From assembly GCF_000993805.1 (NCBI RefSeq), contig NZ_CP009961.1:676714-740713 (forward strand): a DNA stretch of 64,000 nt. The letters run 5' to 3'. Positions 49,176-64,000 of this stretch are shown piece after piece. The notes below the pieces were generated by a model. The model saw only the letters and a program-made list of their open reading frames with translations, searched no databases and was not told the DNA's origin. This stretch comes from Thermofilum uzonense. GTDB lineage: Archaea; Thermoproteota; Thermoprotei; Thermofilales; Thermofilaceae. Each line of letters starts with the position of its first letter. The stretch's first letter is position 1. The translations under genes were made by a program, and so were the position numbers.

Positions 49176-50423
49176 CTACTTTAAAGACTTCCATAAATCA
49201 ATGAGGAGCTCGGGAGCCTCCGTATGAACCGGGATCACCTCTCTAGGTTTGACCAGCTTAAACAGCTTCACCAGCTCATGCGGGTAATAATGGCCTGAGA
49301 CCCTTAACCTATACGTCTGGACGCCCAGCCTGCCAAGCCACCTGAGCGCCGCAGCCTCCTCTGTCGCTTCCTCCGACTCGTGCTCAGAAAGCATAAGCAG
49401 TGCAAAGCCGCCCTTCAGACTCAACTCGCTTGGAATGGCCCTCGCGAAGTCGACAAGATCGAGGAGATCAGCTATCACTACGAACTTTGAGAGATCCCGA
49501 ATCTCATCAGGGCTTATGAGGTGAATCCTTGACACCTTATCGGCTAGGCTGAGAGGCCTGGAAACGTTATCCATGGGGATGCCTAGCCCGGGAGCCCATG
49601 CCTCTAAGACATCTAAAAGCTTTGATGAAGCTAGAATAGCGTGCCTCCCAAAAGCCTTTACCTCATCTAGGATGAACGCTAGGAGATCTAGTTCAAGCCT
49701 ATGAAGAGCAATTAGAAGTGGAGCGTTTAGCGAAAACACTCTCCGCAATATGTTTATAAGCTCATCCTTGCCCAGTGGAGTTACAGGCTTACCTATATTC
49801 GTTCCTTCAATTATCAGTTTATCGACACGCATGTCGCTTTCCCGTTCAAAGAACTCGAAGAAGCCACGGCCTTCCTCTCCCACACGTGAGAAAGACTCAA
49901 AGCGAAAGTCCCCTGTGTACAGGACTGTCTCATCACTCCCGAGGTAAAGGTAGGATGAGGCCGGGTACGCGCTGTGGCTGATCGGGAGAGCAATAACATC
50001 GTTCACGTCATGTACAAGTGGCTCTGCCTCATGGACTTGTAGATCATATCTTGGAGGAATATAGGCTAACCAGTCCGGGGAGTCTCTATACCACTCTTCC
50101 AGCAATGTAAGCCCTAAGCGTGAGGGAACCCTGACCTCGAGGCCTGAGGGGAGGTCGCCCAGGAGGCCAAGGTGATCCAGATGGTAGTGTGTCACGTAGA
50201 GTGCATCAACATCCTCCAGTTCACCGTAGGGTGGAAGCACCCCAATCTCCCTAAACTCCATGGGGCCTGAAGGCCTCAGGCGTGCCCCGTAGAACTTTTT
50301 AAAGAGGGAGAAACGCAGGCCCTGGTCGAACAACAGCTTCTTGTCCCCGTCGCGTATCTTGACGCAATTCCCACCTATCTCCCTTTGACCCTGTAAAACC
50401 TCTACCTCAACCACTAGCTTCAC
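49176..50423 (-). CDS. Beta-CASP metallo-beta-lactamase-fold nuclease (RNase J-like) in the defence unit
   Basis: 415 residues. The N-terminus (LQGQREIGGNCVKIRDG) is that of MBL-fold RNA/DNA nucleases. The metal motif is THYHLDHLG near residue 78, with later ligands His (ALPISHSAYPASSYL) and Asp (YTGDFRFES). The beta-CASP end has VSGHYYPHEL and VIPVHTEAPE (motifs B and C). Such enzymes degrade RNA or DNA ends, with either 5'-exonuclease or endonuclease action. It is the last gene of the five-gene leftward run, starting at GTG 50423 inside the 3' end of the helicase gene (17-bp overlap). This strongly suggests a role as an effector or processing nuclease. The activity is not proven. Confidence 0.8.
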   Translation of the reverse strand: MKLVVEVEVLQGQREIGGNCVKIRDGDKKLLFDQGLRFSLFKKFYGARLRPSGPMEFREIGVLPPYGELEDVDALYVTHYHLDHLGLLGDLPSGLEVRVPSRLGLTLLEEWYRDSPDWLAYIPPRYDLQVHEAEPLVHDVNDVIALPISHSAYPASSYLYLGSDETVLYTGDFRFESFSRVGEEGRGFFEFFERESDMRVDKLIIEGTNIGKPVTPLGKDELINILRRVFSLNAPLLIALHRLELDLLAFILDEVKAFGRHAILASSKLLDVLEAWAPGLGIPMDNVSRPLSLADKVSRIHLISPDEIRDLSKFVVIADLLDLVDFARAIPSELSLKGGFALLMLSEHESEEATEEAAALRWLGRLGVQTYRLRVSGHYYPHELVKLFKLVKPREVIPVHTEAPELLIDLWKSLK

Positions 50424-53346
50424 CCGGGAGCAGAAGGTATTTTATAACGCCTTTCTGCTGTACACGCATCTTCGAGAGGGGATCCTGGATCGCCACTAGC
50501 TGGGGCCTCCCGCTTCCAATGTTTGTCACGATGTAAAGCCAGTACTTCTCTCTCTGCGACTCGGCCATCCTATACTCCTCCTCCGTCAGCTCCGCGAGAA
50601 GCGAGGGGCCCTTGTGACCCTTCACCTCTATGAACCGCTCCTCGCCAGTCCCCGGGTCCCTGCTGTAGATGTCGTAGTGCTCGTGCTGGCTCACGTCCAC
50701 AGGCTCCCGCCCCCGGTTCCTCTCGTACTCCATCGCCACCCTCATCGCCTCCTGCTCGACCTGCCTGCGCTCCTCCATACTCATCTCCGCTTCAACGGCG
50801 AGAGCGCCGGGGCTAGTGAATCGTATCACACCGATAAGCCTAGGGTCACCCAGAGTATACTTATTGAAGGGATCAGTATCCTTACCCACCCTTAGCCCCC
50901 TTTTGACGAGGCTTTCCCGATACCTCCTGTAGTCGCTTAGAAGGGTCTCAAGGACGTCTCGAGCCGTTCTCCTTAATTTCACATCATCGCTATGTTCTGA
51001 TGATTGGAATTCCTGGGCCTCCAAGACAAGTTCACGCAATGTCAAAGACAGGAGTTTTAACAGCTCAGCACCCCTGATCACAGACCCAGCATCATCAACA
51101 GCAACTGGTTCACTGTAAACAACCCTCCCCTCTACATCCTTAAACGATAACTCGTAAACCCGTATTTCGCGCTCCGCCTCCCCTTTTGCAACGAGAAAAA
51201 CCGGCTTTTGCAGGGAGACTTCCCCCAGAGCCCTCATGAGAGCGGACAATGCCCTCCACGTCTCGGATAATGGGATTGGAGTCCCGCCAATCGATTTAAC
51301 AGCATAATCGCCTCCATACTCGTGGACAAGGTCGGGTCTAAGTCGCGAGAGAGACCTTATAAGATCTCCTGCGGCTTCCTTCGCCTCTTGCACAGTGGCA
51401 AAGCCCGTGCCCTTATACATAAATTCTGCTATTAGATCCCTGTCTGGCCTCTCTAAGCCTCCAACCTTCTTGAGATCCTCTTGGAGCTGAACTATAGTAT
51501 TGTAGATCTGCTCGACAAGCCTCTCTAAAGCCTTTTCACCACCCTTTAGGTACTCGCTCCTGAGACGATACTCGGTAACCCTTGAAACCCGTTGACCACG
51601 CCTAACCACTGGTGGGGGAAGCTGTGCGCGCTGCTCAAGATCTATCACAAGCGCCTCTTCCCCTACGGGGGGCTTGTCAAGCTTGCCTAAAGCTCTCCCC
51701 ATCGCTATGAGCTTGCTGTACAAAACTTTCAAAACGTCCATGTCACTATCCACTGCAAGAAAAACAGTGTACACTTTCACCTCTCTCCTCTGACCTAGCC
51801 TCCACACTCTGCCGATTCTCTGCTCTAACTTAACGGGAGACCAGGGTGGCTCGTAGTTAATGAGGATGTTGGCTACCTGGAGGTTTAGGCCCTCAGAGGC
51901 GACATCCGTTGCAACCAAGACCCTCCCACCGGGCTTCTCAAGCCATTTTTTCACGTTTGATAGTCTGTCCTCCTTCCGAGCGTCGTCACCCGTAAGAAGC
52001 CCGACTTTCTCCTGTCCTAATCTTTTAGCTAAGATCCTTGAAACATGCATTGCGGTGTCACGGAACTCAGTGAACACTATAACCTTCTCTCCTGAACCCA
52101 CGTGCTGCTCTACAAGGTCAATCACGGCACTAAGCCTACTGTCATTCTCTAGAATATTCTTCGCAAGGTTTACCAGCGATTTCATCTCTTTGACATCATT
52201 CTCGGAAAAGTATGCTGAACAAGACTCCGCGAAATCCTCCACTATCTTGTCGGGGTCAGTATCACTCTCAAGCTCCTCAAAACCCAGACCCAAGACTGCC
52301 CTAGCCAGTCTCAACTGCTTCATGTTAAGTTTTCCAGGCCGGAGGAAGTCGTGACGCCCCAAATTGATTAAGGCCGCCCTCTTCGCTAGGATCTTCTCCA
52401 TAGTGCTAATCGCGGCATAAGGGCTAGATGAAGCCCTCTTGAATATCAAGGCGTTCAGTAGGCCCAAGGCCCTCTGATCGGTTCCTGTAAGCTTGTGATA
52501 GTCAAGTATCTTTGTCCTGAGGAACTTGATAAGCCTCGAGTGAAACTCGACCTCGTCCCCTGTGGCCTGCACAACGACAGCCACAACCTTACACGGGGGA
52601 AAAACCTCCCTCCCCTCATACACATTGTTGACGTCAATCTTCGTCCGCCTAAAGATCAATACGTTGCGGGCACTCGCATGGAACTCTGGTCTATCTAGGG
52701 CCTTAAAGTCTTTTACAAGGTAAGGATCTAGGAGACGGAGCCTATTCAAGTAGTCCCTCGGATCCCCTCTATGGGGCGTCGCAGATAGAAAAAGCATATT
52801 CCTCTTAACGTCTGACGATATACTGGATACAAACCTTAACCTAAGCGTCTCACGACCAGTAGAGGGTAAGCTGAGCCTATGCGCCTCGTCGACTATAACG
52901 AGATCCCAATTCACCCTCTGTACTTCATCCCGATACCTTGACCTCTTAACTAGGTCGAGGGATGCGACATAAACTCCTCTAGAGAAGCTCCCCTCATTAA
53001 GACCCCTGAAGTTAGACCTCTCGATCCTCCTAGGTATTAAATTAAACCTCTCAAGCTCTAGGATCCACTGCCTAACAAGCACTCTTGGAACAAGAACAAG
53101 AACCCTTTCAGCGTATCCGAGCTCCATGAGCCTTTCCATTGCCAGGATAGCAGTAATCGTCTTACCTAGACCTATCTCGTCGGCTACAAACACCCTCAGC
53201 GGCTGCCGGAATAAAACCCTGGCGAGAAACTCCGCCTGATGAAGATACGGCGTTACCGGAGGATTCGCCTTAACCAGTGCCGAGAAGAATACAGGGTTAT
53301 AATGCGAGTAAACCCTGAAAACCTCCCTGACCAGATCTACAGCCAT
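50407..53346 (-). CDS. SNF2-family helicase with a C-terminal DUF3883 nuclease-like domain
   Basis: 979 residues. SF2/SNF2 motifs: FVADEIGLGKTITAI (I) near residue 55, VIVDEAHRL (II, DEAH) near residue 152, LFLSATPHRGDP (III), VLVATDVASEGLNLQVANI (V) and QRIGRVWRLGQRR (VI) near residue 515. This is the RapA/HepA-like branch that translocates on double-stranded DNA. A helical middle part follows. The last ~100 residues are DUF3883-like: YDIYSRDPGTGEERFIEVKG, with Asp and E-x-K forming a PD-(D/E)XK-like core. It is analogous to the DISARM DrmD helicase and to the helicase of Hma systems. The gene begins 1 bp after the small 140-residue gene. Confidence 0.88.
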   Translation of the reverse strand: MAVDLVREVFRVYSHYNPVFFSALVKANPPVTPYLHQAEFLARVLFRQPLRVFVADEIGLGKTITAILAMERLMELGYAERVLVLVPRVLVRQWILELERFNLIPRRIERSNFRGLNEGSFSRGVYVASLDLVKRSRYRDEVQRVNWDLVIVDEAHRLSLPSTGRETLRLRFVSSISSDVKRNMLFLSATPHRGDPRDYLNRLRLLDPYLVKDFKALDRPEFHASARNVLIFRRTKIDVNNVYEGREVFPPCKVVAVVVQATGDEVEFHSRLIKFLRTKILDYHKLTGTDQRALGLLNALIFKRASSSPYAAISTMEKILAKRAALINLGRHDFLRPGKLNMKQLRLARAVLGLGFEELESDTDPDKIVEDFAESCSAYFSENDVKEMKSLVNLAKNILENDSRLSAVIDLVEQHVGSGEKVIVFTEFRDTAMHVSRILAKRLGQEKVGLLTGDDARKEDRLSNVKKWLEKPGGRVLVATDVASEGLNLQVANILINYEPPWSPVKLEQRIGRVWRLGQRREVKVYTVFLAVDSDMDVLKVLYSKLIAMGRALGKLDKPPVGEEALVIDLEQRAQLPPPVVRRGQRVSRVTEYRLRSEYLKGGEKALERLVEQIYNTIVQLQEDLKKVGGLERPDRDLIAEFMYKGTGFATVQEAKEAAGDLIRSLSRLRPDLVHEYGGDYAVKSIGGTPIPLSETWRALSALMRALGEVSLQKPVFLVAKGEAEREIRVYELSFKDVEGRVVYSEPVAVDDAGSVIRGAELLKLLSLTLRELVLEAQEFQSSEHSDDVKLRRTARDVLETLLSDYRRYRESLVKRGLRVGKDTDPFNKYTLGDPRLIGVIRFTSPGALAVEAEMSMEERRQVEQEAMRVAMEYERNRGREPVDVSQHEHYDIYSRDPGTGEERFIEVKGHKGPSLLAELTEEEYRMAESQREKYWLYIVTNIGSGRPQLVAIQDPLSKMRVQQKGVIKYLLLPGEASG

Positions 53347-53347
53347 C

Positions 53348-53770
53348 CTAGTCCAACCCGTGCAGTACCTTGAACGCCCGAGCCGGCCTCCGAAGCGCTA
53401 CCCTGCCCCTCTCGAAGGCCGCTAAGAACCTCGTGAACCAGAAGAACAGCTCGTACTCGTCCAGGCCCCTCACCACCTCCTCCAGCTCCCTCACCTTCGC
53501 CTCGCTCCTCAGCGTCTCGCGGACGGCCGCGTAGACCGCGAGCCTCTTGTAGGTACCCTCCCCCACCCTCAACGAGCGCTTCTTAGGCCGCACGAGCCCC
53601 CCAAGCCGCTCAGCCAGCAGCACCAGCTCGCTCCACGGGCACGCAGCGGCGAGCTCCGGCTTCCCGAGGTAGACGTTCGGGTAGAAGCGGCACACCTGCA
53701 CAGTGTCGACACTATTGCGGCGCTTGACCCGCTTCTCCGCGTACACAATAAGCCTCTCCGCCTCGCTCAT
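53348..53770 (-). CDS. Small protein of unknown function linking DUF499 and the helicase
   Basis: 140 residues, basic (many Arg), with RLIVYAEKRVKRRNSVDTVQ then VCRFYPNVYLGKPELAAACP at the start. A helical second half follows (RELEEVVRGLDEYELFFWFT). Two cysteines are close together. It overlaps the DUF499 stop by ATGA (53767-53770), and the helicase starts 1 bp after its own stop, so it is clearly part of the unit. It is shorter than DUF3780, the usual small partner in this position, and I do not recognise it. It may be an adaptor between ATPase and helicase or bind DNA. Confidence 0.65.
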   Translation of the reverse strand: MSEAERLIVYAEKRVKRRNSVDTVQVCRFYPNVYLGKPELAAACPWSELVLLAERLGGLVRPKKRSLRVGEGTYKRLAVYAAVRETLRSEAKVRELEEVVRGLDEYELFFWFTRFLAAFERGRVALRRPARAFKVLHGLD

Positions 53771-56700
53771 AGCGAACTCACACCCCTGTACTTCGATAAC
53801 TTCCTCTCCGTCTCATCCGTGTACTCGACGGGCTTCCCCAGCTTGAGCAGCGCCCTGAGCTCGCTCGGCGCGAAGATTCCCGTGCTCCTCATCAGCTCCC
53901 TCACGAGCGCGGGGAAGACCGCCGGGTCGACGCGCCTCACGGTAAGCTCGACAGACAGATCGCCACGCTCCAGGCGGACATGCCCCTCCTCCAGCTCCAG
54001 GGGCCCGAACTCGCCGCTCCTCAGCAGATCCTCGAGCCCCTCGAGCTCCTTGGCGACGAGCCTCCTGATCAGGGGAACCCTTTCGGCCTTCACGAACACG
54101 GCGAGCGCGCCAAGAGCCGGGCGCTCGAGCTCCGGCGAGGTGGCGGTGACCTCAAAGCGATACTCTCCCTCCGCCTCGGGGGCCCTGAGCCTCCACGTGG
54201 CCTTGAAGGGCGGTACCCCGCTGCTCGGCTCCACGGAGCCCTCGCTAACACGCAGCGACACAGGCTGCTTGAGGGGCTCCACGGGCTCCACGAAGACCTC
54301 GACGGCCACCTCCTCGCCTGGAGCCGCCTCGACCGCGCTCCTCGCCACGGTGACCAAGACCCTGTCCCCGATCTCCTCCTCTATCCTTACCAACGGGGAA
54401 GTCAGGAGCACGTCCACAACCTTATCGGGGGGCAGCTGGTCCAGCGGCGTTTCGCGCCCCTTGACCAGCACGGCGTAGCTGACCCTCACCTTCCTACCCT
54501 GGCTCTCGGCCACGCCCGGCTTCAAGCTCTCCAGCAGTCTGGACGCGGCCAGCCTCCGGGGGAGGACGATGTCGGTCTCCAGCACGCTCTCGGGTACCTC
54601 GCCTGACGGGTATTCTGGGGCCTCCTCGCGCCTGTACACGCGGGCCCAGAAGAGCCTACCGTCCTTCTGGAGCCCGATCCTCAGCGTGCTGACTCCCTCC
54701 ATCAGGGCTTGGAACACGAGCTCCCTCCTGACGAAGGGGAGCCTCGGGTTCGTGAAGAAGTAGCTGAGGATGTTCCCAACCGTCAGCTCCTTCTCGCCCT
54801 CGGACAGCGCAACCCCTGTGCTCTTCAGCAGGTGGTCGAGCTCGTCGAAGCTCAGCGCGTCGATTTTCGCCTTGCCCACGTCGGGGCTCGCCAAGGTGTC
54901 CTCGGCTACGACAGCGAGCGACGTGGCGCGGGGGCTGGCCCTGGCCTTGACCACTTCCTCGCCGCTCGGGAACGCCACCGTGTCGAAGGCTGAGATTATC
55001 TCGCTGTACAGCTGCTCCTCAAGCTTCTTGCTTAGCTCCCTGAGCTTCTTGCCCTGCAGCTCTCTAGAGTCTTTGTCCAGGTAAATTTCCTTCAGCTGCT
55101 TCTCCACGCTATTGCAGGCCACAAGCTTAGCGCAGAGCCCCAGCAGGTGCTCAACCCTCCTCTCGTCGCTCGGGTAGAGCACGGCGACCGTGTTCCTGTA
55201 GACCTTGACGCCGCCCTCCTTCCGCTCGAAGATTATCCTCCTCACCTCGTCGTCGCTTAGCCTCCTGGGGGAGATTACAAGGTAGTGTGCTGGCTCGTCG
55301 AGGGGCAGCGGCTCGTCCCTCACCTGCGCGTCGAAGAGGCGGGGCGCCCCCTCCCTCGGCGCACCAGGTGGGGGCTCGCGGGCGAGCTTTCTCAGGGCGT
55401 CGACCAGCCTCTCCCGGGCTGTGACAGGGCTCACGCGCTTGGCCTCGTCCTCGACAATCTCGATGACCGAGCGCATCGGGTTGTACCAATACCGCCCATC
55501 CCTCTCCTGCAGGTAGAGCAGCTCGCTCGCCGCGATGTTCAGCTGGTTCTGCACGTCCACGGGCTTACGCCCGGTGCCCCTGGCGAGGGACTCCTCGTAG
55601 ACCATGAACGCCACGTCCTCCTTCGTCGGGAACACCCTCTCCGGGGTCAGCGCCGTCCCGTACACGTACGTCCTCAAGAAGATCGAGAGCGCGACCCTGT
55701 ACAAGAGGCCCGTCGGATCCAGCTGCCTCGCCCTGCCGAGGAGGTCCTTGTCGACTACAGGGGCGAAGGAAGCGAAGGACTGGGTGAGCAGGAAGCCCCT
55801 GATCTTGTCGTCCGCCACGTCGATGTGCCACGGCATTACGAAGTCAGGGTCCTCGCCGCTCTGCAGGATCCTTCTCACGACGAGCCTGGAGATCCTTAGC
55901 GCGTCCCGCGTCCGCTGCAACTCGGGATTCCTCGTCACGATGTCGTAGAGTGTCTCCAGGTAGCTCGGGTGGAACGGCGCCGTGGCGTCGAGCTTGGACG
56001 CCGCGTCGACCGCGCTCCTCCCGAAGACGTCCTGCTCCCTGCTGTAGAGGTCCAAGTACCTGCTGCGGAGCTCCTGCACACTCCTCTCGTCAATGCTCTC
56101 AAAGATCCTCCTCTTCAAGACGTGCATGATCTCCTCGGGCCGCAGCGGGACGTCGTAGGCCGCCGTGACCCTGCCTATGCCCCTCCGGATCATCCCGACG
56201 GCCTCCCTGTACGCGTCCACGTACCTCTCCTCGCCCTCCCTCACCTCGAGTGGGAGCGTCACAACCAGCGCGGCCCTCGTCCCCTCTACCGCCTTGGCGA
56301 GGCTCTCGACGAAGGCGATGACGTTCTTCCCGTAGCCCCTCAGCCCCTCGTCTCCTGACTCGAGGAACCTGGTCGCGTACTTCGCGATCTCGTCGACCAG
56401 GATGACCGCGGGCTCCTCGCCCAGGAGCCTGTGCAGGGCCTCGGCGGTGGGGGCGTAGGCCTTCTCGTCCTCCTCCCTGAGCTGGGCGTAGCGGCCCAGC
56501 TGGTGCGCCAGCGAGCCCCAGATCGTCCTCACCTGGTAGGGGGCGAGGCTAAGCGGCTTCGAGGGGTTCGGGCACAGCTCGTCGGACTCCCCGTCCAGCA
56601 CGACGACCCTTGGCCGGGCCTTGGCGTACAGCGCTCCCAGCTCGGGGTCCAGCCTCCCGAGCGCCTCGTGCCTCCTTGCCGCGTGTACGATCGCGAGCAG

Positions 56701-56961
56701 CAGGTGTGTCTTGCCGCCGCCGTACAGCGAGAACAGCGGGAAGATCCGGCGCGCCCCCCTCCCCAGCGCCGCCTCGGCTACTTCGCGCAGGATCCCCTTC
56801 ATCGAGTCGGAGAGGTACGTTGCCGCGAAGAACTGCTCCGGATCCCTGTAGAGCTCGTGGCCCCGGCCCAGGTAAGCGTCAGCGAGCGAGGGCGCCAGCT
56901 GCGCGTCCAGCGCCTCGTCGAAGAGATCGCTCCGGGCCCTCGCGTACTCCTTAAGCCCCAT
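53767..56961 (-). CDS. DUF499-type defence ATPase
   Basis: 1064 residues. The N-terminal AAA-like module has EQFFAATYLSDSMKGILREV then Walker A LYGGGKTHLLLA (residues 79-90), Walker B AVILVDEIAKYATRF near residue 190, and an arginine-rich sensor region. The long middle part is helical. The C-terminal ~250 residues include an immunoglobulin-like segment (PLKQPVSLRVSEGSVEPSSG) and an all-beta/alpha end. DUF499 proteins co-occur with DUF1156 methylases and helicases in defence islands. The ATPase is thought to power or gate the response, by mechanism unknown. It overlaps DUF1156 by 11 bp. GC content is much higher than in the surrounding genes. Confidence 0.88.
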   Translation of the reverse strand: MGLKEYARARSDLFDEALDAQLAPSLADAYLGRGHELYRDPEQFFAATYLSDSMKGILREVAEAALGRGARRIFPLFSLYGGGKTHLLLAIVHAARRHEALGRLDPELGALYAKARPRVVVLDGESDELCPNPSKPLSLAPYQVRTIWGSLAHQLGRYAQLREEDEKAYAPTAEALHRLLGEEPAVILVDEIAKYATRFLESGDEGLRGYGKNVIAFVESLAKAVEGTRAALVVTLPLEVREGEERYVDAYREAVGMIRRGIGRVTAAYDVPLRPEEIMHVLKRRIFESIDERSVQELRSRYLDLYSREQDVFGRSAVDAASKLDATAPFHPSYLETLYDIVTRNPELQRTRDALRISRLVVRRILQSGEDPDFVMPWHIDVADDKIRGFLLTQSFASFAPVVDKDLLGRARQLDPTGLLYRVALSIFLRTYVYGTALTPERVFPTKEDVAFMVYEESLARGTGRKPVDVQNQLNIAASELLYLQERDGRYWYNPMRSVIEIVEDEAKRVSPVTARERLVDALRKLAREPPPGAPREGAPRLFDAQVRDEPLPLDEPAHYLVISPRRLSDDEVRRIIFERKEGGVKVYRNTVAVLYPSDERRVEHLLGLCAKLVACNSVEKQLKEIYLDKDSRELQGKKLRELSKKLEEQLYSEIISAFDTVAFPSGEEVVKARASPRATSLAVVAEDTLASPDVGKAKIDALSFDELDHLLKSTGVALSEGEKELTVGNILSYFFTNPRLPFVRRELVFQALMEGVSTLRIGLQKDGRLFWARVYRREEAPEYPSGEVPESVLETDIVLPRRLAASRLLESLKPGVAESQGRKVRVSYAVLVKGRETPLDQLPPDKVVDVLLTSPLVRIEEEIGDRVLVTVARSAVEAAPGEEVAVEVFVEPVEPLKQPVSLRVSEGSVEPSSGVPPFKATWRLRAPEAEGEYRFEVTATSPELERPALGALAVFVKAERVPLIRRLVAKELEGLEDLLRSGEFGPLELEEGHVRLERGDLSVELTVRRVDPAVFPALVRELMRSTGIFAPSELRALLKLGKPVEYTDETERKLSKYRGVSSL

Positions 56962-59900
56962 GCAACCACCCCTCGAGCGTGCCAGTGCCCGTCTGGTAGG
57001 AGAGCACGCGGCCGCATAGCTCTTTCTCGGGGTCCGTCGGGGGGAGCAGCCTGTGGAGAACCTTGGCGAGCCTCACGGCCTCGCCGACGTGGTGGGCCCC
57101 CAGGGCCCTCAGCCGCTCGTAGCGCTTCTTAAACTCCTCGACGCCGTAGCTCACGGCGTAGTACTCGAGCATGTGCAGCGCGTCGACAGGGCTCCTCAGC
57201 GAGGGCTCCGCCGGGTCGAGGCCCCGCTTGCGGAAGAGCTCCACCAGGTCGTCCCTCCCGCCCCCCCTCGGCTCCAGCAGGAGGAAGTCCTCGCCGCCCC
57301 TCTCAACGATCGCCAACGCAGCAAGCCGCTTGTCGTCGACGCCCGTCCCGAGTCCGAGAATGTGCGCCGCGCTCCGATCCATCACCCTCCTCCCGGCCCT
57401 GGCGCTGCGCGGCAACAGGAGCTTCGCTAGCATATAGTACAGCGCCTCGCCGCTCCTCACCTCCTCCACCCCGCCCTCCTCGCCCGCGGCTCTGGCTAGG
57501 GCCCTGGCCAGGCCCCTCGCGGCCGCAGGGTAGGCCTTCTCGGCCACCAGCCTGCCGATGTCCTCTGCGCCTACCACCTTCTTCCTCGAGGTGAAGGGGG
57601 CCAGTGTGGCCGCAAGCGTGCCCACGAACAGGTCGACGCCCCACCAGCCAGCCTTGAGCAGCTCCTCGGCTCGCCGCTCCGCCGACGCGACGGCCTCCCT
57701 GTACACCTCGTCCGCGAGCGCCTCGCCGGCGCGGCCTGGCCTCCACACCACCACGATCGAGGTGTCGAGCGCCGCCTTGCCCCTGGCCGTCACGCGCTGC
57801 GCCGACTCCGTCGCCACCGGAAACGCTGCACTGACACGGAAGCCGGCGCGCCAGCCGGCGGAGATCAGCTCCTCCCAGGCCTCGGGGTTCGTGTGCGCGT
57901 AGTACGTCACCAGCAGCCCGTCGTCCGCGAGCAGCTCGCGCATCCTGGAGAACGAGCGGCGGAGCAGCTCGATGAAGTGCTCACGAGCCGCCTCCTTACT
58001 TGCTCTGCCGCCTTCGAAGAAGCTGAGCCTGCCCGGGCTCAGGCCAACCTCCCTCATCGCGAACTCCTCCCACTGCGTCCTCACCTCCCTATAGCCCCCG
58101 CCCACCTCCCTGAAGAACGCCTCGCCAAGGAAGCGGGGCGCGAGCCTCCCATCCACCACGTCGCACAGCGCCCTCTTCAGCCACACGTAGTAGAAGTCGC
58201 TCAGCTCAGAATAGGGTACATCATCACGGTAAGGCGGGTCGGTTACCACGATGTCGATCTTCTCGTCCTTAAGCCCGCTGAGTACAGCAGCGTCATCGAG
58301 CAAAACCCTAATCTTACCCGGACTGCGAGAAACGGCGGTAATAAGGTAAGCTAAGGCTCGTGTTTCTGACCTGACAGCATTAGCGAATGAAACGGGTGTC
58401 TTAAGAACACCTGACAGTCTCTTCTCAGCAAAGGGCTGTATTTCGCACCAATTCCATTGCATGGCAATTCCTCTATCAGCCAGAGAAGGTGATACATCTA
58501 CACCCCAAGGATTGCTTGAGTGTAACCAGGTCATCATGGTATTGTACACTGTGTGCTTCAATACCGCCGTTGCTAGATACACTGTCACCGCTTCGGAGTA
58601 CTCGAACGCTTCCTCCTTGCTCCAGCCCTCTGCCAGCTTCTCCTCCTCGACCCTCTTCCCAGCCTCCCTGACCAGCTTGACGAGCTTGACCAGGGTCAGG
58701 AGCTGGCGCGGGTTGAAGAGCTTGTAAAACTTGTCAAAACCCCAAAGAGTGATTCCAAAGGTACCTGCAGTGCCCATTTGGTATGGTGCAAATAGCTCCG
58801 TTGGTATATCTGGGTCTCCCCACATACTCCTCAGCTTCTCGAGCGCCCTCCACAACTTCTCTGTGTCCGCGGGCTTGCAGGGCTCGAAGCTCAGGTCGCC
58901 CCCCTCGACCCTGACCTTGACGAGGAGGATGGGCCTCGCGGGCGCCGCCCTGACCTCCTCGAGGCTCGCCCTGCCCTCCAGGTAGCGCTCGAGCAGGGTG
59001 TTCCACTGTTTGAGGGCCCACTTGACGTACCACTCGTAGTCCTGGCCCTTGGGCCTCTCGACGGTGTGCCTGCCGGCCGGTGTGATGAAGCGGATCTGGT
59101 TCCCGCAGTGGAGGCACGTCGCAACCTCGCGCTTCGCGTCGACGTTGGGCTTCCTGACCGTGTAGCGCCTCCCGCCGACCTCCACGTAGCCCTGCTTCGC
59201 GTTGACCTTTGCCTTCAGGGCCTTCGCCCCTAGCTCTCTGTTCAGGTCGACAACTTTGATCGAGTGGTCCCAGTCCATCCAGGCGAGCCTGGTGAAGAGG
59301 CCTTTCCTAGCACCCTCCTCTTCCCCCTCGGGCCCGGCCTCTTGCTCGGCGGCCTTGCGGACTCTGGCGAGCCACCAGTTGCCGACCAGGGGGGTGTACT
59401 TGCCGCAGTGGGGGCACTTTACCTCCCAGGTGCCGATGTAGACGGCGACGTCTGGCTCGTAAAGCTCCTTTATGTCAGGGTCTTCTTTGAGGTGCTCGGC
59501 AACCCGTTTGCCCCACTCTTCGACGTCCTTTACAAGCTTGTCGCCTAGTTTTTCCTCGACGGCCCATCTTGGGTACTCGAGGACCGCCTTAAGGAGCACA
59601 TAGGCTGTGGGTAGGAGCTCGACGGCTACGACCTCGCCGAAGCCAAGCCTTAGTGCTTCTAGGGGGATTGAGCCGTAGCCCGCGAAGGGGTCTAGCACCC
59701 TCATCTTGGATATCTTGTCCTTTATCTCCTCGGGGAGTTGAGGGTTCTCGCGGTGTGGGACATTCCCGACATTCTTGTCTCTGAGATCCACCTTGACGCG
59801 TAGTATATACCTGGTGAAGGATTGCTCGTCGAAGTCAGCTGGGAGGGCTGCTGCGGCTAGAACGGCCCTGGCGCTTGCGAGGGGTTTGCGTGTCCACCAG

Positions 59901-60016
59901 AAGACCATTTCCCAGTGTGGGGGCCTGCCTCCTCCTTGCTTCTCCTTGGCGGAGGCCTCGTTTATAATACTGACGGGGAGCCTTGGCGACTCGATAAATC
60001 TTTCTGGCTTAGACAT
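56951..60016 (-). CDS. DUF1156-family DNA methyltransferase (putative N6-adenine or N4-cytosine)
   Basis: 1021 residues. The N-terminal DUF1156 signature is FIESPRLPVSIINEASAKEK then PPHWEMVFWWTRKPLASARA (residues 7-52). The SAM motif is LDPFAGYGSIPLEALRLG near residue 109, two zinc ribbons follow (CPHCG at 201-205 and CLHCG near 297), and the catalytic motif is VVTDPPYRDDVPYSELSDFY near residue 590. DPPY marks amino-methylation of DNA. About 480 residues lie between the SAM and catalytic motifs and may hold target recognition. It is the first gene of the unit, with a TATA-like box at 60041-60053. Its modification could mark self DNA. Composition varies sharply within the gene. Confidence 0.9.
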   Translation of the reverse strand: MSKPERFIESPRLPVSIINEASAKEKQGGGRPPHWEMVFWWTRKPLASARAVLAAAALPADFDEQSFTRYILRVKVDLRDKNVGNVPHRENPQLPEEIKDKISKMRVLDPFAGYGSIPLEALRLGFGEVVAVELLPTAYVLLKAVLEYPRWAVEEKLGDKLVKDVEEWGKRVAEHLKEDPDIKELYEPDVAVYIGTWEVKCPHCGKYTPLVGNWWLARVRKAAEQEAGPEGEEEGARKGLFTRLAWMDWDHSIKVVDLNRELGAKALKAKVNAKQGYVEVGGRRYTVRKPNVDAKREVATCLHCGNQIRFITPAGRHTVERPKGQDYEWYVKWALKQWNTLLERYLEGRASLEEVRAAPARPILLVKVRVEGGDLSFEPCKPADTEKLWRALEKLRSMWGDPDIPTELFAPYQMGTAGTFGITLWGFDKFYKLFNPRQLLTLVKLVKLVREAGKRVEEEKLAEGWSKEEAFEYSEAVTVYLATAVLKHTVYNTMMTWLHSSNPWGVDVSPSLADRGIAMQWNWCEIQPFAEKRLSGVLKTPVSFANAVRSETRALAYLITAVSRSPGKIRVLLDDAAVLSGLKDEKIDIVVTDPPYRDDVPYSELSDFYYVWLKRALCDVVDGRLAPRFLGEAFFREVGGGYREVRTQWEEFAMREVGLSPGRLSFFEGGRASKEAAREHFIELLRRSFSRMRELLADDGLLVTYYAHTNPEAWEELISAGWRAGFRVSAAFPVATESAQRVTARGKAALDTSIVVVWRPGRAGEALADEVYREAVASAERRAEELLKAGWWGVDLFVGTLAATLAPFTSRKKVVGAEDIGRLVAEKAYPAAARGLARALARAAGEEGGVEEVRSGEALYYMLAKLLLPRSARAGRRVMDRSAAHILGLGTGVDDKRLAALAIVERGGEDFLLLEPRGGGRDDLVELFRKRGLDPAEPSLRSPVDALHMLEYYAVSYGVEEFKKRYERLRALGAHHVGEAVRLAKVLHRLLPPTDPEKELCGRVLSYQTGTGTLEGWLHGA

Positions 60017-60053: not shown

Positions 60054-60722
60054 TAAACTTAAGGGTTGATTAGACTCTTAAATTAAACAGTATAGGATTG
60101 CTGGGTATGCATGCCAGCGACAGTGGTCTTGCTCTTCGAGGAGGGGAGGGTTGCGCATCTATGTTGATCTATGCATGGCTTTGAAGAATAGAGCCGCGCG
60201 ATTCAAACTAGGTTTCCCACTTATTGCAGCTCAAAGCGATATGATGTGTTAACCGCTTGTGAGCTACGATGAGGGAGCGGTAGCTTTAGTCTGGCTTAAG
60301 GGTTCGGGGGCATTTAAGCTGTCTATGTCTTTTGCTTGGAGGCTTCAAGTTCTATTTTCTCGTAGATTAGGTGGTAAGAGTACACGGTAAGCGTGAGCAT
60401 GGCTGAACTCGCTATGAGTCATAGCTTCAAGTCGTCCGTAACTAGGGCTGGGTTGATCCTGGCAAATGTCAAGGTGGGCTTTGTGGTAGGCGATAGTAAT
60501 TAACTCTAGGGACTTTTTAATTACCTCGCTGATGATGGTTTTCACAGTGGCTTTATGCCGGGCTAGTAGTTCGCTGGTGATTTTCTCCTCTTCTACTTGT
60601 TCGCTAATGAACAACTGTGGTCTCTAGTAATGTAATATTCTTGTAGATTTATCAATTATCATATCCATCTTTTAACTTAGCGAAAAAAAACTTATAATGA
60701 CCTATAAATAAAAAATATTGCT
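60054..60722. other. Intergenic region between the DUF1156 gene and the EVE-like gene
   Basis: About 670 bp. The minus strand at 60345-60614 has an open frame of 89 codons from a TTG (MFISEQVEEEKITSELLARH and so on). Its first two-thirds look like a charged helical protein but its tail is not protein-like, and it has no clear ribosome site. I treat it as a remnant or a doubtful gene. The rest holds the two divergent promoters; TATA-like sequences for the EVE gene are at 60689-60711. No repeats. Confidence 0.4.
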
Positions 60723-61301
60723 ATGGTATTCGTTAATTCTACGAAACCATCTAGGCTATTAAGGCATTGGTTACAGAATATCGATGAAACTGTCGACGAG
60801 GCTGAATTATGGGTTTCATCAGGTAAACCTGAACACTGGCAGTGGAGTCTCAAATATTCAGAGTATGTCGAGAATGGCTATACGTATTGGGGTACACGTC
60901 TTAATATCAGTAGTTTAAGGGATTTCTGCGGAGAGATAAAAAATGTTCATGCTGCTTCCCTAAATAAAATGCTTGAAGAACTAATGCATGGGAAAAAACC
61001 TCAAATTGTCCTATTTTATGTTAGCGAAACTGGTATAGTTGGGGCTGGACTTGTAACGAGTTTCGAGTTCGACTTTTCGAATCTATTTTGGCCGGAGGAA
61101 AAAAGTTCAGGAGATGTTGAGTTCCCATTCAGGTTTAAAATGAAGATTCTTTGGCTCTCCCCCTTTGATGAAAAAGGCGGTGATGAAGAACTCACAAGGC
61201 TTTTAAAAAACTACGTTAGGAGCAGTTTACAGCACGTGAAGGATGAAAAAGTTGTTAAGAAGGTAAAGAGACTTCTTAAAGAGAGGATCAAAGAGGTCTA
61301 A
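60723..61301 (+). CDS. EVE/PUA-like putative modified-base reader
   Basis: A 192-residue protein on the strand opposite the defence genes. It follows the EVE (PUA-superfamily) pattern: an opening strand (SGKPEHWQWSLKYSEYVENG), YWGTRLNISSLRDFCGEIKN, the central IVLFYVSETGIVGAGLVTSF, and FPFRFKMKILWLSPF. The W and KxxQIVLFYV-x-GIVG elements form the base-binding cage in this fold. EVE and related domains in bacteria recognise modified cytosines or adenines and are often fused to nucleases. Here the domain is almost the whole protein. The GC content is low (about 40%), unlike the methyltransferase. ATG 60723, AT-rich promoter. The ligand is inferred. Confidence 0.7.
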   Translation: MVFVNSTKPSRLLRHWLQNIDETVDEAELWVSSGKPEHWQWSLKYSEYVENGYTYWGTRLNISSLRDFCGEIKNVHAASLNKMLEELMHGKKPQIVLFYVSETGIVGAGLVTSFEFDFSNLFWPEEKSSGDVEFPFRFKMKILWLSPFDEKGGDEELTRLLKNYVRSSLQHVKDEKVVKKVKRLLKERIKEV

Positions 61302-61576: not shown

Positions 61577-64000
61577 CTAGCTGCCAATGAGTTCCTTCTT
61601 GAGAGCGGCAGCGTCAGCCCTATTAGCCTTAAGCTCGAACCAGTTGATGGAGTCGAGGCCGGTGAAGTTCTGGGTGGTGTACACCACCAAGCTCTCGTCT
61701 ATGATGATGCACTTGTCATGCCTTGGCTGATCTAGCTGGCGAACCTCGATTAACCCCTTGTAGCGGTCGCCCAGCATCTGAATAGTATCTGCGCGCGTGA
61801 CGAGTCTCACTTTAACCCCTCTACGGGCCGCCTCCTCCAGGATCCTCGCCCCGTCATCATCAACGTACGGGGACAGCACTACAAGCTCCCTCTCGGCGAG
61901 GCTGAGAAGGGGCTCAAGCAGGGATCTCCCTCTTCCGTACAACTTCTCCTTTCCCGTTAGTACGCTCAGAAGCCACCTCGTCAAGTTCCTGGAAAGCAGG
62001 AGGTTCTGGATTAGCGGCTCGGTGCAGCCCCTGTCAAGCATCACGCACATTGTGCAACCATCAATGCACTGAACAAATCCCATGTCTTCGTATACTATGT
62101 TCTCCAGGAACCTCTCCAGGAGTTCCTGAACCTCATCCTGGCTAAGTCCTATTTCATTTGCGATCTTCTCGCTCTGAGATTCATCGTTTAGCTGCAGGTG
62201 ATATGCAAAGGTGGGTAGATCCATTACAACGCCGTGCTGTATGAGCTGGGAATACCGCACCCTTATAGCCTTCGCCACCTTGCGTAGATCCTGCTTATCG
62301 GGGTACTTGGCTGATGCTGCTCCTCCCTTGAACGCATTCATCAGGTCTTTCTCGTGTCCATCTAGATGCCATAACGCCTTCTCGAGGAACTCTTGAACCA
62401 GCTTCTCCACGGAACCGAAACGAGCTTCCACGTGGCCTGGTAGGTCTATCGCGCCGTGGGGGCTGTTCTCGGCCACAAGAACCACTATGTAGTCATCCTG
62501 AACGCCGTACACGTAGATCAAGTCCTGCGACTCAATTTCGAGCTCGCTGGACACAAATGCATACAGAAGGTGAGCAAGGGTATGCGCGAAGACATTGGTG
62601 AGGTACTTTATTAGCTCTTTTTTCAACTTTTCATTTGATCGAAGCTCGTTATAGAACTTTTCAAATGTCTTAATTATTGACTCTGTTTTCATTTCTAAGA
62701 GGCTTAACTGGCGACGACCCCCATCTGTAAGCCTATAAAATGCGAATTTCGAGATGAGAAGCTTGTCCAAACCTATCTCCTTTATCTTGTCGCCCGTTAC
62801 TGAAAGCCTCACGCTCGGCTTTGGCTTTACCTCCTCGCTTATCAGCTCTGACAAGGCCGCCTCGACAAGTCCGCGAGGTAGCTTAAAGCCCACGACGTTC
62901 GTCCTAGTAAGCTTCCTAATAATGGGCTTCTCGAACTCTACCTCGACCAGGGCTCCGTAGGCCACCGGGCTAGGCATGAACCACTGCGCGCTGGTGAAGC
63001 GCTCGACTATCGTTGCCTCTCGAACGCTAACCGGTATGAAAGGTGTCGCAGCGTCCTGGTGCTCCGATGAGCTCCTGGGCAGCCTAGGGAGGCTCCTTTC
63101 TGCCTTAACGTAAACTTTTGGGAAGAGCCTTCTGCTGTAGTGCCAGTTGGGACACCTATCCCCCTTACTGCGTAACGTTCTACCTATGTGGCAGTCATTC
63201 TCGAAGGGACAATTTCGGAAATCATAGGGATCTGTCGAAAGCGCTAGCCCAAGCTTACAGTACCAGACGTAGCCGAGGTCGTTAACCCTGTAAGCTTTGT
63301 CCCCTGCTTTGCTTTTTGTAATCAACTTTCTGTAATCTTCCTGGACGACATCAATACTCTTCTTCTCGAGCTCTCTGAACAGCCTTCCCGAACCATACTT
63401 AACGAATACCCTCTTGGTAGTCTTTCCAATGGGAACTCTTATCTCAATAAAGATATTATTATCATGGACCCTTCTCAGATTCACTGGCCTGATTTTCGTG
63501 AGTCTAAGCCATCCTCCCCCCTCCTGCACTTTACCATATAGGACTTTTTCTTCACTTATTATTCTATTCAGCTTATGATCACGGAAGGTTACATTCTTAG
63601 CCTTTATGAACCACACATTACTGCCAAATACTCCGTCTACCTCGACGTGTATGGGCTCAAAGGGTGGATACCTTGCAAGAAAGTCGTCAAGCGGGAGCCT
63701 CGATTCTCCTCCCTCCTCACTCCCTCTGGTGTAGCCTTCAATTTCGAAGTCTACTTCCTCGGCTGATGAGATGCCAGCTAGACTTCTCAAGCCAGTGAGC
63801 TTTGAAATCATGTCGTGAACCCATAACCCCTTTGCTCTGAGAATCTCACGAAGAATTCTTGCTATCTCGAGAGCTACAGAGTGCCCACCACCGCGGTACT
63901 GCCCAGCATCGGTCAGCTGATCAACCAATATTCGATTTACTTTTAGTAGATCACGGATGAGGCCCTCTAGGTTTTCTAGCTTATCGATCAAGCTGCGAAG
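61577..64000 (-). CDS. DUF1998 (DrmB-like) and phospholipase D (DrmC-like) fusion, 5' end possibly outside the window
   Basis: At least 804 residues from TTG 63991; the frame stays open to 64000, so the real start may lie further right. A cysteine cluster (NCPFENDCHIG...GDRCPNW) lies near residues 262-290. The DUF1998 region (about 465-665) has FAHTLAHLLYAFVSSEL, AENSPHGAIDLPG and the four-Cys signature CIDGCTMCVMLDRGC followed by LLLSRNLTRWLL. The last ~130 residues are a PLD domain with RHDKCIIIDESLVV (HxK-x4-D), one catalytic half-site, so a dimer is needed. In DISARM the DrmB and DrmC functions are separate genes; here they are one chain. The helicase DrmA would be expected upstream (beyond 64000) if this is DISARM-like. 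Confidence 0.83.
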   Translation of the reverse strand, partial: LRSLIDKLENLEGLIRDLLKVNRILVDQLTDAGQYRGGGHSVALEIARILREILRAKGLWVHDMISKLTGLRSLAGISSAEEVDFEIEGYTRGSEEGGESRLPLDDFLARYPPFEPIHVEVDGVFGSNVWFIKAKNVTFRDHKLNRIISEEKVLYGKVQEGGGWLRLTKIRPVNLRRVHDNNIFIEIRVPIGKTTKRVFVKYGSGRLFRELEKKSIDVVQEDYRKLITKSKAGDKAYRVNDLGYVWYCKLGLALSTDPYDFRNCPFENDCHIGRTLRSKGDRCPNWHYSRRLFPKVYVKAERSLPRLPRSSSEHQDAATPFIPVSVREATIVERFTSAQWFMPSPVAYGALVEVEFEKPIIRKLTRTNVVGFKLPRGLVEAALSELISEEVKPKPSVRLSVTGDKIKEIGLDKLLISKFAFYRLTDGGRRQLSLLEMKTESIIKTFEKFYNELRSNEKLKKELIKYLTNVFAHTLAHLLYAFVSSELEIESQDLIYVYGVQDDYIVVLVAENSPHGAIDLPGHVEARFGSVEKLVQEFLEKALWHLDGHEKDLMNAFKGGAASAKYPDKQDLRKVAKAIRVRYSQLIQHGVVMDLPTFAYHLQLNDESQSEKIANEIGLSQDEVQELLERFLENIVYEDMGFVQCIDGCTMCVMLDRGCTEPLIQNLLLSRNLTRWLLSVLTGKEKLYGRGRSLLEPLLSLAERELVVLSPYVDDDGARILEEAARRGVKVRLVTRADTIQMLGDRYKGLIEVRQLDQPRHDKCIIIDESLVVYTTQNFTGLDSINWFELKANRADAAALKKELIGS

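What the first reader, a model, noticed from the sequence alone, without database searches (positions are those of the whole stretch)
61577..64000. DrmB-like DUF1998 region and a DrmC-like PLD nuclease fused in one polypeptide
The DUF1998 signature (HTLAHLL, a SPxGA loop, four Cys, LSRxL) and the PLD HxK-x4-D half-site sit in a single chain of at least 804 residues. In the DISARM systems I know they are separate neighbouring genes. A fusion is strong evidence that the two act on the same DNA end or complex.
Basis: partly seen in the sequence, partly recalled or inferred. Interest (0 to 1): 0.7.

Follow-up and report, generated by a model that had tools for sequence, protein, structure and literature searches.

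The report
Zinc-domain helicase partner fused to nuclease
A heat-loving archaeon carries an antiviral-type helicase whose partner subunit has a DNA-cutting domain built in, and related systems across this archaeal phylum keep that domain or replace it with a different nuclease gene, which points to it as the cutting part of the machine.

Summary
The gene runs past the window end: the whole protein is 971 aa, in a genome matching Thermofilum uzonense. It carries a DUF1998/MZB zinc module (HTLAH, Cys4) followed by one intact PLD half-site (HDKCIIID). The DUF1998 call, weak alone, is secured by homologues: one passes Pfam's MZB cut-off and matches PLDc_2 strongly in a single chain. The PLD part is nearest to nucleases (Zucchini/Nuc/NucT, DrmC, DpdK).

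"DISARM" is only partly right. The upstream gene is a YprA-type helicase, but the DrmB model finds nothing in this genome and the helicase does not group with DrmA. Thirteen of 398 sampled genomes of the phylum carry the DUF1998-PLD link; their 12 recoverable helicases form one supported clade. Two members fuse helicase, DUF1998 and PLD in one chain. A methyltransferase gene is adjacent in 12 of 13. A sub-branch lacks PLD and has a Cas4-like PD-(D/E)xK gene instead.

Best reading: a YprA-helicase, restriction-like defence with the nuclease wired into its DUF1998 subunit. New variant of a known kind; Druantia III already joins these domains differently. Function is untested.

The parts
61577..64000 (-). 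C-terminal 807 residues of the 971-aa DUF1998(MZB)-PLD fusion protein; the gene continues beyond the window to C1:741205 (164 more residues, mostly coiled-coil-like)
63191..63259 (-). CKLGLALSTDPYDFRNCPFENDC: extra Cys motif N-terminal to DUF1998 (C412, C428, C434 nearly invariant in the family); probable zinc module
62003..62611 (-). DUF1998/MZB region (residues 628-830): HTLAH helix, ENSPHGA loop, Cys4 cluster
62024..62068 (-). CIDGCTMCVMLDRGC, four-cysteine cluster of DUF1998
61577..61936 (-). PLD (HKD) nuclease domain, residues 853-971; PLDc_2 match at 862-944
61697..61720 (-). HDKCIIID catalytic HxK(x4)D half-site; H, K, D and the following N are invariant in 11 homologues
60723..61301 (+). 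192-aa EVE-like gene between the fusion gene and the DUF1156/DUF499/SNF2 cluster; no Pfam hit, but 40% identical over 47 aa to the clearer EVE-type gene L002:13300-13659
60561..60617 (+). 57-bp direct repeat (53/57), in a ferritin 3'-end remnant; the partner copy is in the intact ferritin gene at C1:747636-747692; the pair brackets the cassette
56951..60016 (-). DUF1156 DNA methyltransferase (HmaB / BR-type) of the neighbouring system
53767..56961 (-). DUF499 AAA+ ATPase (HmaC / BR-type)
53348..53770 (-). 140-aa protein, homologous to L063:15980-16432 in another such locus
50407..53346 (-). SNF2 helicase with NOV_C domain (HmaA / DrmD-like)

Best explanation
This is the accessory-and-nuclease subunit of a YprA-family helicase defence complex that, as far as sampled, is peculiar to Thermoproteota. 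The gene upstream (C1:741202-743421, 739 aa) supplies the RecA1-RecA2 motor. The 971-aa protein supplies a helical arm, a cysteine-bearing region, the DUF1998 canopy that closes over the motor, and a C-terminal PLD half-site that must pair with a second copy to cut DNA. Proposed mechanism: the motor loads on single-stranded or unmodified parts of invading DNA, DUF1998 closes, and two complexes bring their PLD domains together and cut; the adjacent DNA methyltransferase marks self DNA. Shown by sequence: the fusion, the intact motifs, the operon, the clade, conserved neighbours and nuclease exchange. Inferred: complex formation, DNA cutting, self-marking, antiviral role.
For: Fusion conserved: 13 of 398 genomes in the phylum hold it, in divergent form (17-43% identity to the window protein), with H925, K927, D932, N942 invariant and C412/C428/C434, H637/H641, C816 nearly so. 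One functional unit: the genes overlap by 4 bp here, and two homologues carry helicase, DUF1998 and PLD in one chain of 1593 and 1677 aa, in different sub-branches. YprA type: closest solved relative by sequence is MrfA/YprA 6znp (1e-9); profile match to DrmA 3.7e-19. One clade: 12 helicases together at 98/97. Nuclease role: two members of the enlarged clade (99/98) have a DUF1998 protein that ends where PLD would begin and carry, just upstream of the helicase, a small PD-(D/E)xK gene with a Cas4-like four-cysteine pattern. Profile match of PLD to DrmC 6.6e-14. Defence context: a DUF1156-like methyltransferase in 12 of 13 loci; DUF499 in 9 of 13 carriers versus 57 of 384 others (Fisher p 2e-5) and within about 10 kb in 5. 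Patchy distribution: 2 of 7 genomes of the genus, sharing only about 25% identity.
Against: No experiment. The window protein alone has no significant MZB match, and the DrmB profile match covers 81 columns at 87.5% probability. Some homologues have eroded motifs: L063/L064 lost part of Cys4, L059/L060 lost the HKD aspartate in register, so cutting may not be universal. No structure support for DUF1998: only four rows could be used and models were poor (pLDDT 38 and 50). The helicase tree has long branches and only a few reference systems.
Confidence: 0.65

Rival explanations
1. It is an ordinary archaeal DISARM in which drmB and drmC happen to have fused.
For: Same kit in the neighbourhood: SNF2 helicase scoring on DISARM_DrmD (247 bits, below its 610 cut-off), methyltransferase, YprA-type helicase, DUF1998, PLD; tree puts the clade on the DISARM/Dpd side (93/97, not resolved).
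Against: DrmB_fam finds no match in this genome while finding 8 canonical DrmB in the phylum; DrmA forms its own clade at 100/100 on a very long branch; the window helicase scores DpdJ 83.7 versus DrmA 37.5 bits.
Confidence: 0.15
2. It is a deep-branching Dpd-like system: Bell et al. (PMC12458937) mention Dpd-like helicases that kept the four cysteines.
For: Best PADLOC helicase profile is DpdJ (1.7e-24, extending N-terminal to the motor); PLD part of homologues matches DpdK as well as DrmC.
Against: No 7-deazaguanine/DpdA-type gene was recognised among the neighbours examined; canonical Dpd helicases form a separate group (81/69; 95/97 with one more row).
Confidence: 0.12
3. A DNA-repair complex of MrfA type, not a defence system.
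For: MrfA/YprA is the nearest solved helicase, and MrfA is a repair helicase.
Against: Patchy distribution (13 of 398 genomes), a methyltransferase in 12 of 13 loci, and DUF499/DUF1156/SNF2 neighbours; MrfA-like helicases fall outside the clade (98/91).
Confidence: 0.08

Closest known systems
DISARM DrmA-DrmB-DrmC (PMC9142583)
   Same: Helicase and DUF1998 subunit in separate adjacent genes; PLD nuclease and methyltransferase in the operon
   Different: [quoted passage not shown] here PLD is part of the DUF1998 chain; DrmB model not matched; helicase outside the DrmA clade
Druantia III DruE (PMC13192584)
   Same: Helicase, MZB/DUF1998 and C-terminal PLD linked in that order; dimeric enzyme that cuts DNA
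   Different: DruE is one ~2000-aa chain with an inactive and an active PLD and partner DruH; here a single PLD on a separate subunit, with a methyltransferase and no DruH seen
Dpd DpdJ/DpdK (split example L086, Deinococcus taeanensis plasmid)
   Same: Helicase, DUF1998-like protein and PLD encoded in a row
   Different: PLD is a separate gene; Dpd carries base-modification genes; helicase in another group
ARMADA / BRIGADE (PMC12458937)
   Same: YprA helicases with nuclease partners; BRIGADE alternates PLD and PD-(D/E)xK nucleases, as this clade does
   Different: ARMADA carries a Vsr-type nuclease at the helicase C-terminus; BRIGADE is reported only from halophilic archaea with deazaguanine genes
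DUF499-centred BR systems / Hma (PMC12839542; archaeal EVE-linked form in PMC7641849)
   Same: The neighbouring DUF1156-DUF499-SNF2 genes are this system
   Different: It is the neighbour, not the thing itself; I found no mention of a YprA/DUF1998/PLD cassette beside it in the passages read

Membership tests
DUF1998 / MZB (Pfam PF09369) | Profile match and Cys4 zinc cluster | tested here: met
   Homologue L058 passes the cut-off (27.4 vs 24.2); Cys4 and HTLAH conserved in the window protein. The window protein alone is below threshold
PLD-superfamily nuclease (Nuc/NucT/DrmC type) | HxK(x4)D and N in one half-site per chain; nuclease rather than lipid relatives | tested here: met
   PLDc_2 3.9e-8; closest solved: Zucchini/MitoPLD 7e-11, Nuc 6e-9, NucT 6e-6; DrmC profile 6.6e-14
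DISARM | DrmB family protein (NF038324) | tested here: not met
   No match in the genome; 8 of 397 phylum genomes pass
DISARM | Helicase of the DrmA clade | tested here: not met
   Separate clades, 98/97 and 100/100
DISARM | DNA methyltransferase in the operon | tested here: met
   612-aa DUF1156-like methyltransferase divergent from the operon; such a gene is present in 12 of 13 loci
DISARM | Separate PLD protein DrmC | tested here: not met
   PLD is within the 971-aa chain
Dpd | 7-deazaguanine insertion genes (DpdA and preQ0 genes) nearby | tested here: inconclusive
   None recognised among profile-scanned neighbours; no dedicated search was run
Druantia III | DruE clade helicase with DruH | tested here: not met
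   DruE falls outside the clade; no DruH hit in scanned genes
ARMADA | C-terminal Vsr nuclease | tested here: not met
   C-terminal domain is PLD
YprA-family helicase system | YprA-like helicase with DUF1998 module in cis or in the next gene | tested here: met
   MrfA/YprA best solved match; DrmA profile match; DUF1998 in next gene

The most novel reading that the evidence does not exclude
A separate archaeal class of YprA-helicase defence, on a level with DISARM and Dpd, defined by an exchangeable nuclease slot (PLD fused to the DUF1998 subunit, or a Cas4-like gene) and working together with the neighbouring DUF499 system.
Probability: 0.35. Interest if true: 0.65.

Novelty: new variant of a known kind. 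Interest (0 to 1): 0.5.

Why it matters
[quoted passage not shown] Here a PLD nuclease is tied to the DUF1998 subunit, in two cases to the helicase as well, and in a sub-branch another nuclease takes its place. That makes the question 'which nuclease cuts, and how does DUF1998 switch it on' directly testable, in proteins from a hyperthermophile that should suit structure work.

Tried and rejected
Structure route: two AlphaFold jobs, restricted to four permitted rows, gave pLDDT 38 and 50; the fold search returned Zucchini-like PLD hits over the PLD part, with E-values of 2e-3 or weaker, and a top match to TrmBL2 at rmsd 14.5, which I disregard. My earlier working claim that the DUF1998-PLD link never breaks in the clade was wrong: an independent helicase search found two members without PLD. 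A conserved fourth gene: the 470-aa upstream gene has one detectable relative (L012, 25%), and other 420-470-aa neighbours are unrelated or only pairwise related. No homologues of the fusion in plasmid or phage collections. The genome-contig scan found only three related loci, with one narrow peptide pattern, so restriction to Thermoproteota is not proven.

Full report
The window lies at C1:676714-740713 of a one-contig genome of 1,611,988 bases. That is exactly the published size of the Thermofilum uzonense 1807-2 chromosome (PMC4673724), and Thermofilum sp. NZ13 falls in the same genus of the relatives search, so I take it as that organism; the identification rests on size and kinship.

The reported frame is cut by the window end. 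Extending it gives a 971-aa protein, L002:3291-6206:-, which starts 4 bp inside the end of an upstream helicase gene. Transcription order on the minus strand: 470-aa protein of unknown family (C1:743436-744848), helicase of 739 aa (C1:741202-743421), DUF1998-PLD protein (C1:738290-741205). A 612-aa methyltransferase (C1:745028-746866, plus strand) reads away from them. Downstream in the window lie an EVE-like gene, then DUF1156 methyltransferase, DUF499 ATPase, a 140-aa protein and an SNF2 helicase with NOV_C: a Hma/BR-type system (PMC12839542).

Domains. The N-terminal ~190 residues give only coiled-coil-like matches (Apolipoprotein, Mis12, SMC). PLDc_2 matches residues 862-944 at 3.9e-8. DUF1998 is not called by Pfam on this sequence, but it is in relatives: L058, a 784-aa homologue, passes the MZB cut-off and has PLDc_2 at 8e-20 in the same chain, and L063 shows weak MZB and DrmB_fam matches. 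In an 11-sequence alignment the catalytic H925, K927, D932 and N942 are invariant, and C412, C428, C434, H637, H641, E675, C816 and E951 nearly so. Profile comparison gives 87.5% probability, E 3.6e-6, to canonical DrmB over the HTLAH region, and 98.1%, 6.6e-14, to DrmC over the PLD domain. The PLD part's nearest solved relatives are Zucchini, Nuc and NucT, which are single-half-site enzymes; from established knowledge of that group, two chains must pair to form one active site.

Distribution. A profile of the family finds it in 13 of 398 sampled genomes of the phylum and 5 of 81 in the class. Only G000 and G006 of seven genomes of the genus have it, with about 25% identity between them, which suggests transfer rather than descent. 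Canonical DrmB is found separately in 8 of 397 genomes of the phylum, with DrmA upstream and mostly a DrmC gene next door, and not in this genome.

The helicase. Its best solved match is MrfA/YprA. In a 28-row maximum-likelihood tree the 12 helicases that neighbour or carry the DUF1998-PLD module form one clade (98/97), apart from DrmA (100/100), Dpd (81/69), Druantia III and a Thermus helicase-methyltransferase system, a BRIGADE-like helicase and MrfA types. Those 12 were selected through the fusion, so I searched again with the helicase profile alone. All strong matches were the same loci; five weaker ones were fetched. In the enlarged tree three of them join the clade (99/98): a truncated contig (L100) and two loci, L103 (same genus) and L104.

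Nuclease exchange. In L103 and L104 the DUF1998 protein stops just after the Cys4/SR segment, where PLD begins in the others. Just upstream of the helicase each has a ~185-aa gene. L104's matches PDDEXK_1 at 2e-9, L103's is its homologue (4e-14), and both keep a D...ExK...Q...Y series and four cysteines, one early and three late, the pattern I know from Cas4. L104 also has an N6/N4 methyltransferase. So within one clade the PLD domain is absent where another nuclease is present. With two loci this is suggestive rather than a proof, but it supports PLD as the cutting part. Two further members, L059 and L060, join helicase, DUF1998 and PLD in one chain, in different sub-branches; their HKD motifs are partly eroded.

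Neighbours. A DUF1156-like methyltransferase lies beside the module in 12 of 13 loci. The DUF499 family occurs in 66 of 397 genomes, but in 9 of the 13 carriers (Fisher p 2.4e-5) and within about 10 kb in five: T. uzonense, G052, G223, G377, G262. The adjacency estimate (p about 2e-7) uses rough assumed gene numbers and genome sizes, and both tests ignore kinship between genomes. In G262 the SNF2, 140-aa, DUF499 and MBL genes all have counterparts. The G223 copies of DUF499 are in pieces in the sequence held.

Boundary. A 57-bp direct repeat (53/57) brackets about 10.4 kb that hold the EVE-like gene, the fusion gene, helicase, 470-aa gene and methyltransferase: one copy is in a ferritin 3'-end remnant at 60561-60617, the other in an intact ferritin gene; there are just two copies in the genome. 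A sister genome has ferritin without the cassette, in unrelated surroundings. This looks like a unit inserted at, or duplicated with, the ferritin end. No tRNA gene lies in the region; no integrase was noticed among its genes, though none was searched for specifically.

Comparison with what is known. Bell et al. (PMC12458937) describe YprA helicases with OB-CON-DUF1998 modules, the separate genes of DISARM, the separate PLD of Dpd, and C-terminal nucleases in ARMADA, TALON and Druantia. The sections I read do not describe a split helicase with PLD on the DUF1998 chain. They do mention Dpd-like helicases that kept the cysteines, and splitting in other lineages, so the clade may be in their tree unlabelled; their supplements could not be read here. 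Mechanistic steps are borrowed from DrmAB (DUF1998 relays DNA binding, PMC9142583) and DruE (PLD domains repositioned on assembly, PMC13192584), and are inference for this protein.

Noticed in passing
window 60561-60617 and C1:747636-747692: 57-bp direct repeat inside a ferritin remnant and the intact ferritin gene brackets the cassette: possible insertion footprint or partial duplication.
   Followed up: partly
L103:8738-9295 and L104:9956-10516: Small Cas4-like PD-(D/E)xK genes just upstream of YprA-type helicases whose DUF1998 partner lacks the PLD domain.
   Followed up: partly
L082:3218-9802: A 2194-aa DrmA-DrmB fusion with a separate 181-aa DrmC gene, in G337.
   Followed up: no
L062:3453-6190: A second DUF1156 methyltransferase broken into four frames beside an intact copy.
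   Followed up: no
L002:13300-13659: A second EVE-type gene just beyond the intact ferritin, so EVE genes lie on both sides of the cassette.
   Followed up: partly
window 49176-50423: Metallo-beta-lactamase-type gene at the end of the DUF499 cluster; it has a counterpart at the same place in G262 (L063:11604-12914).
   Followed up: no
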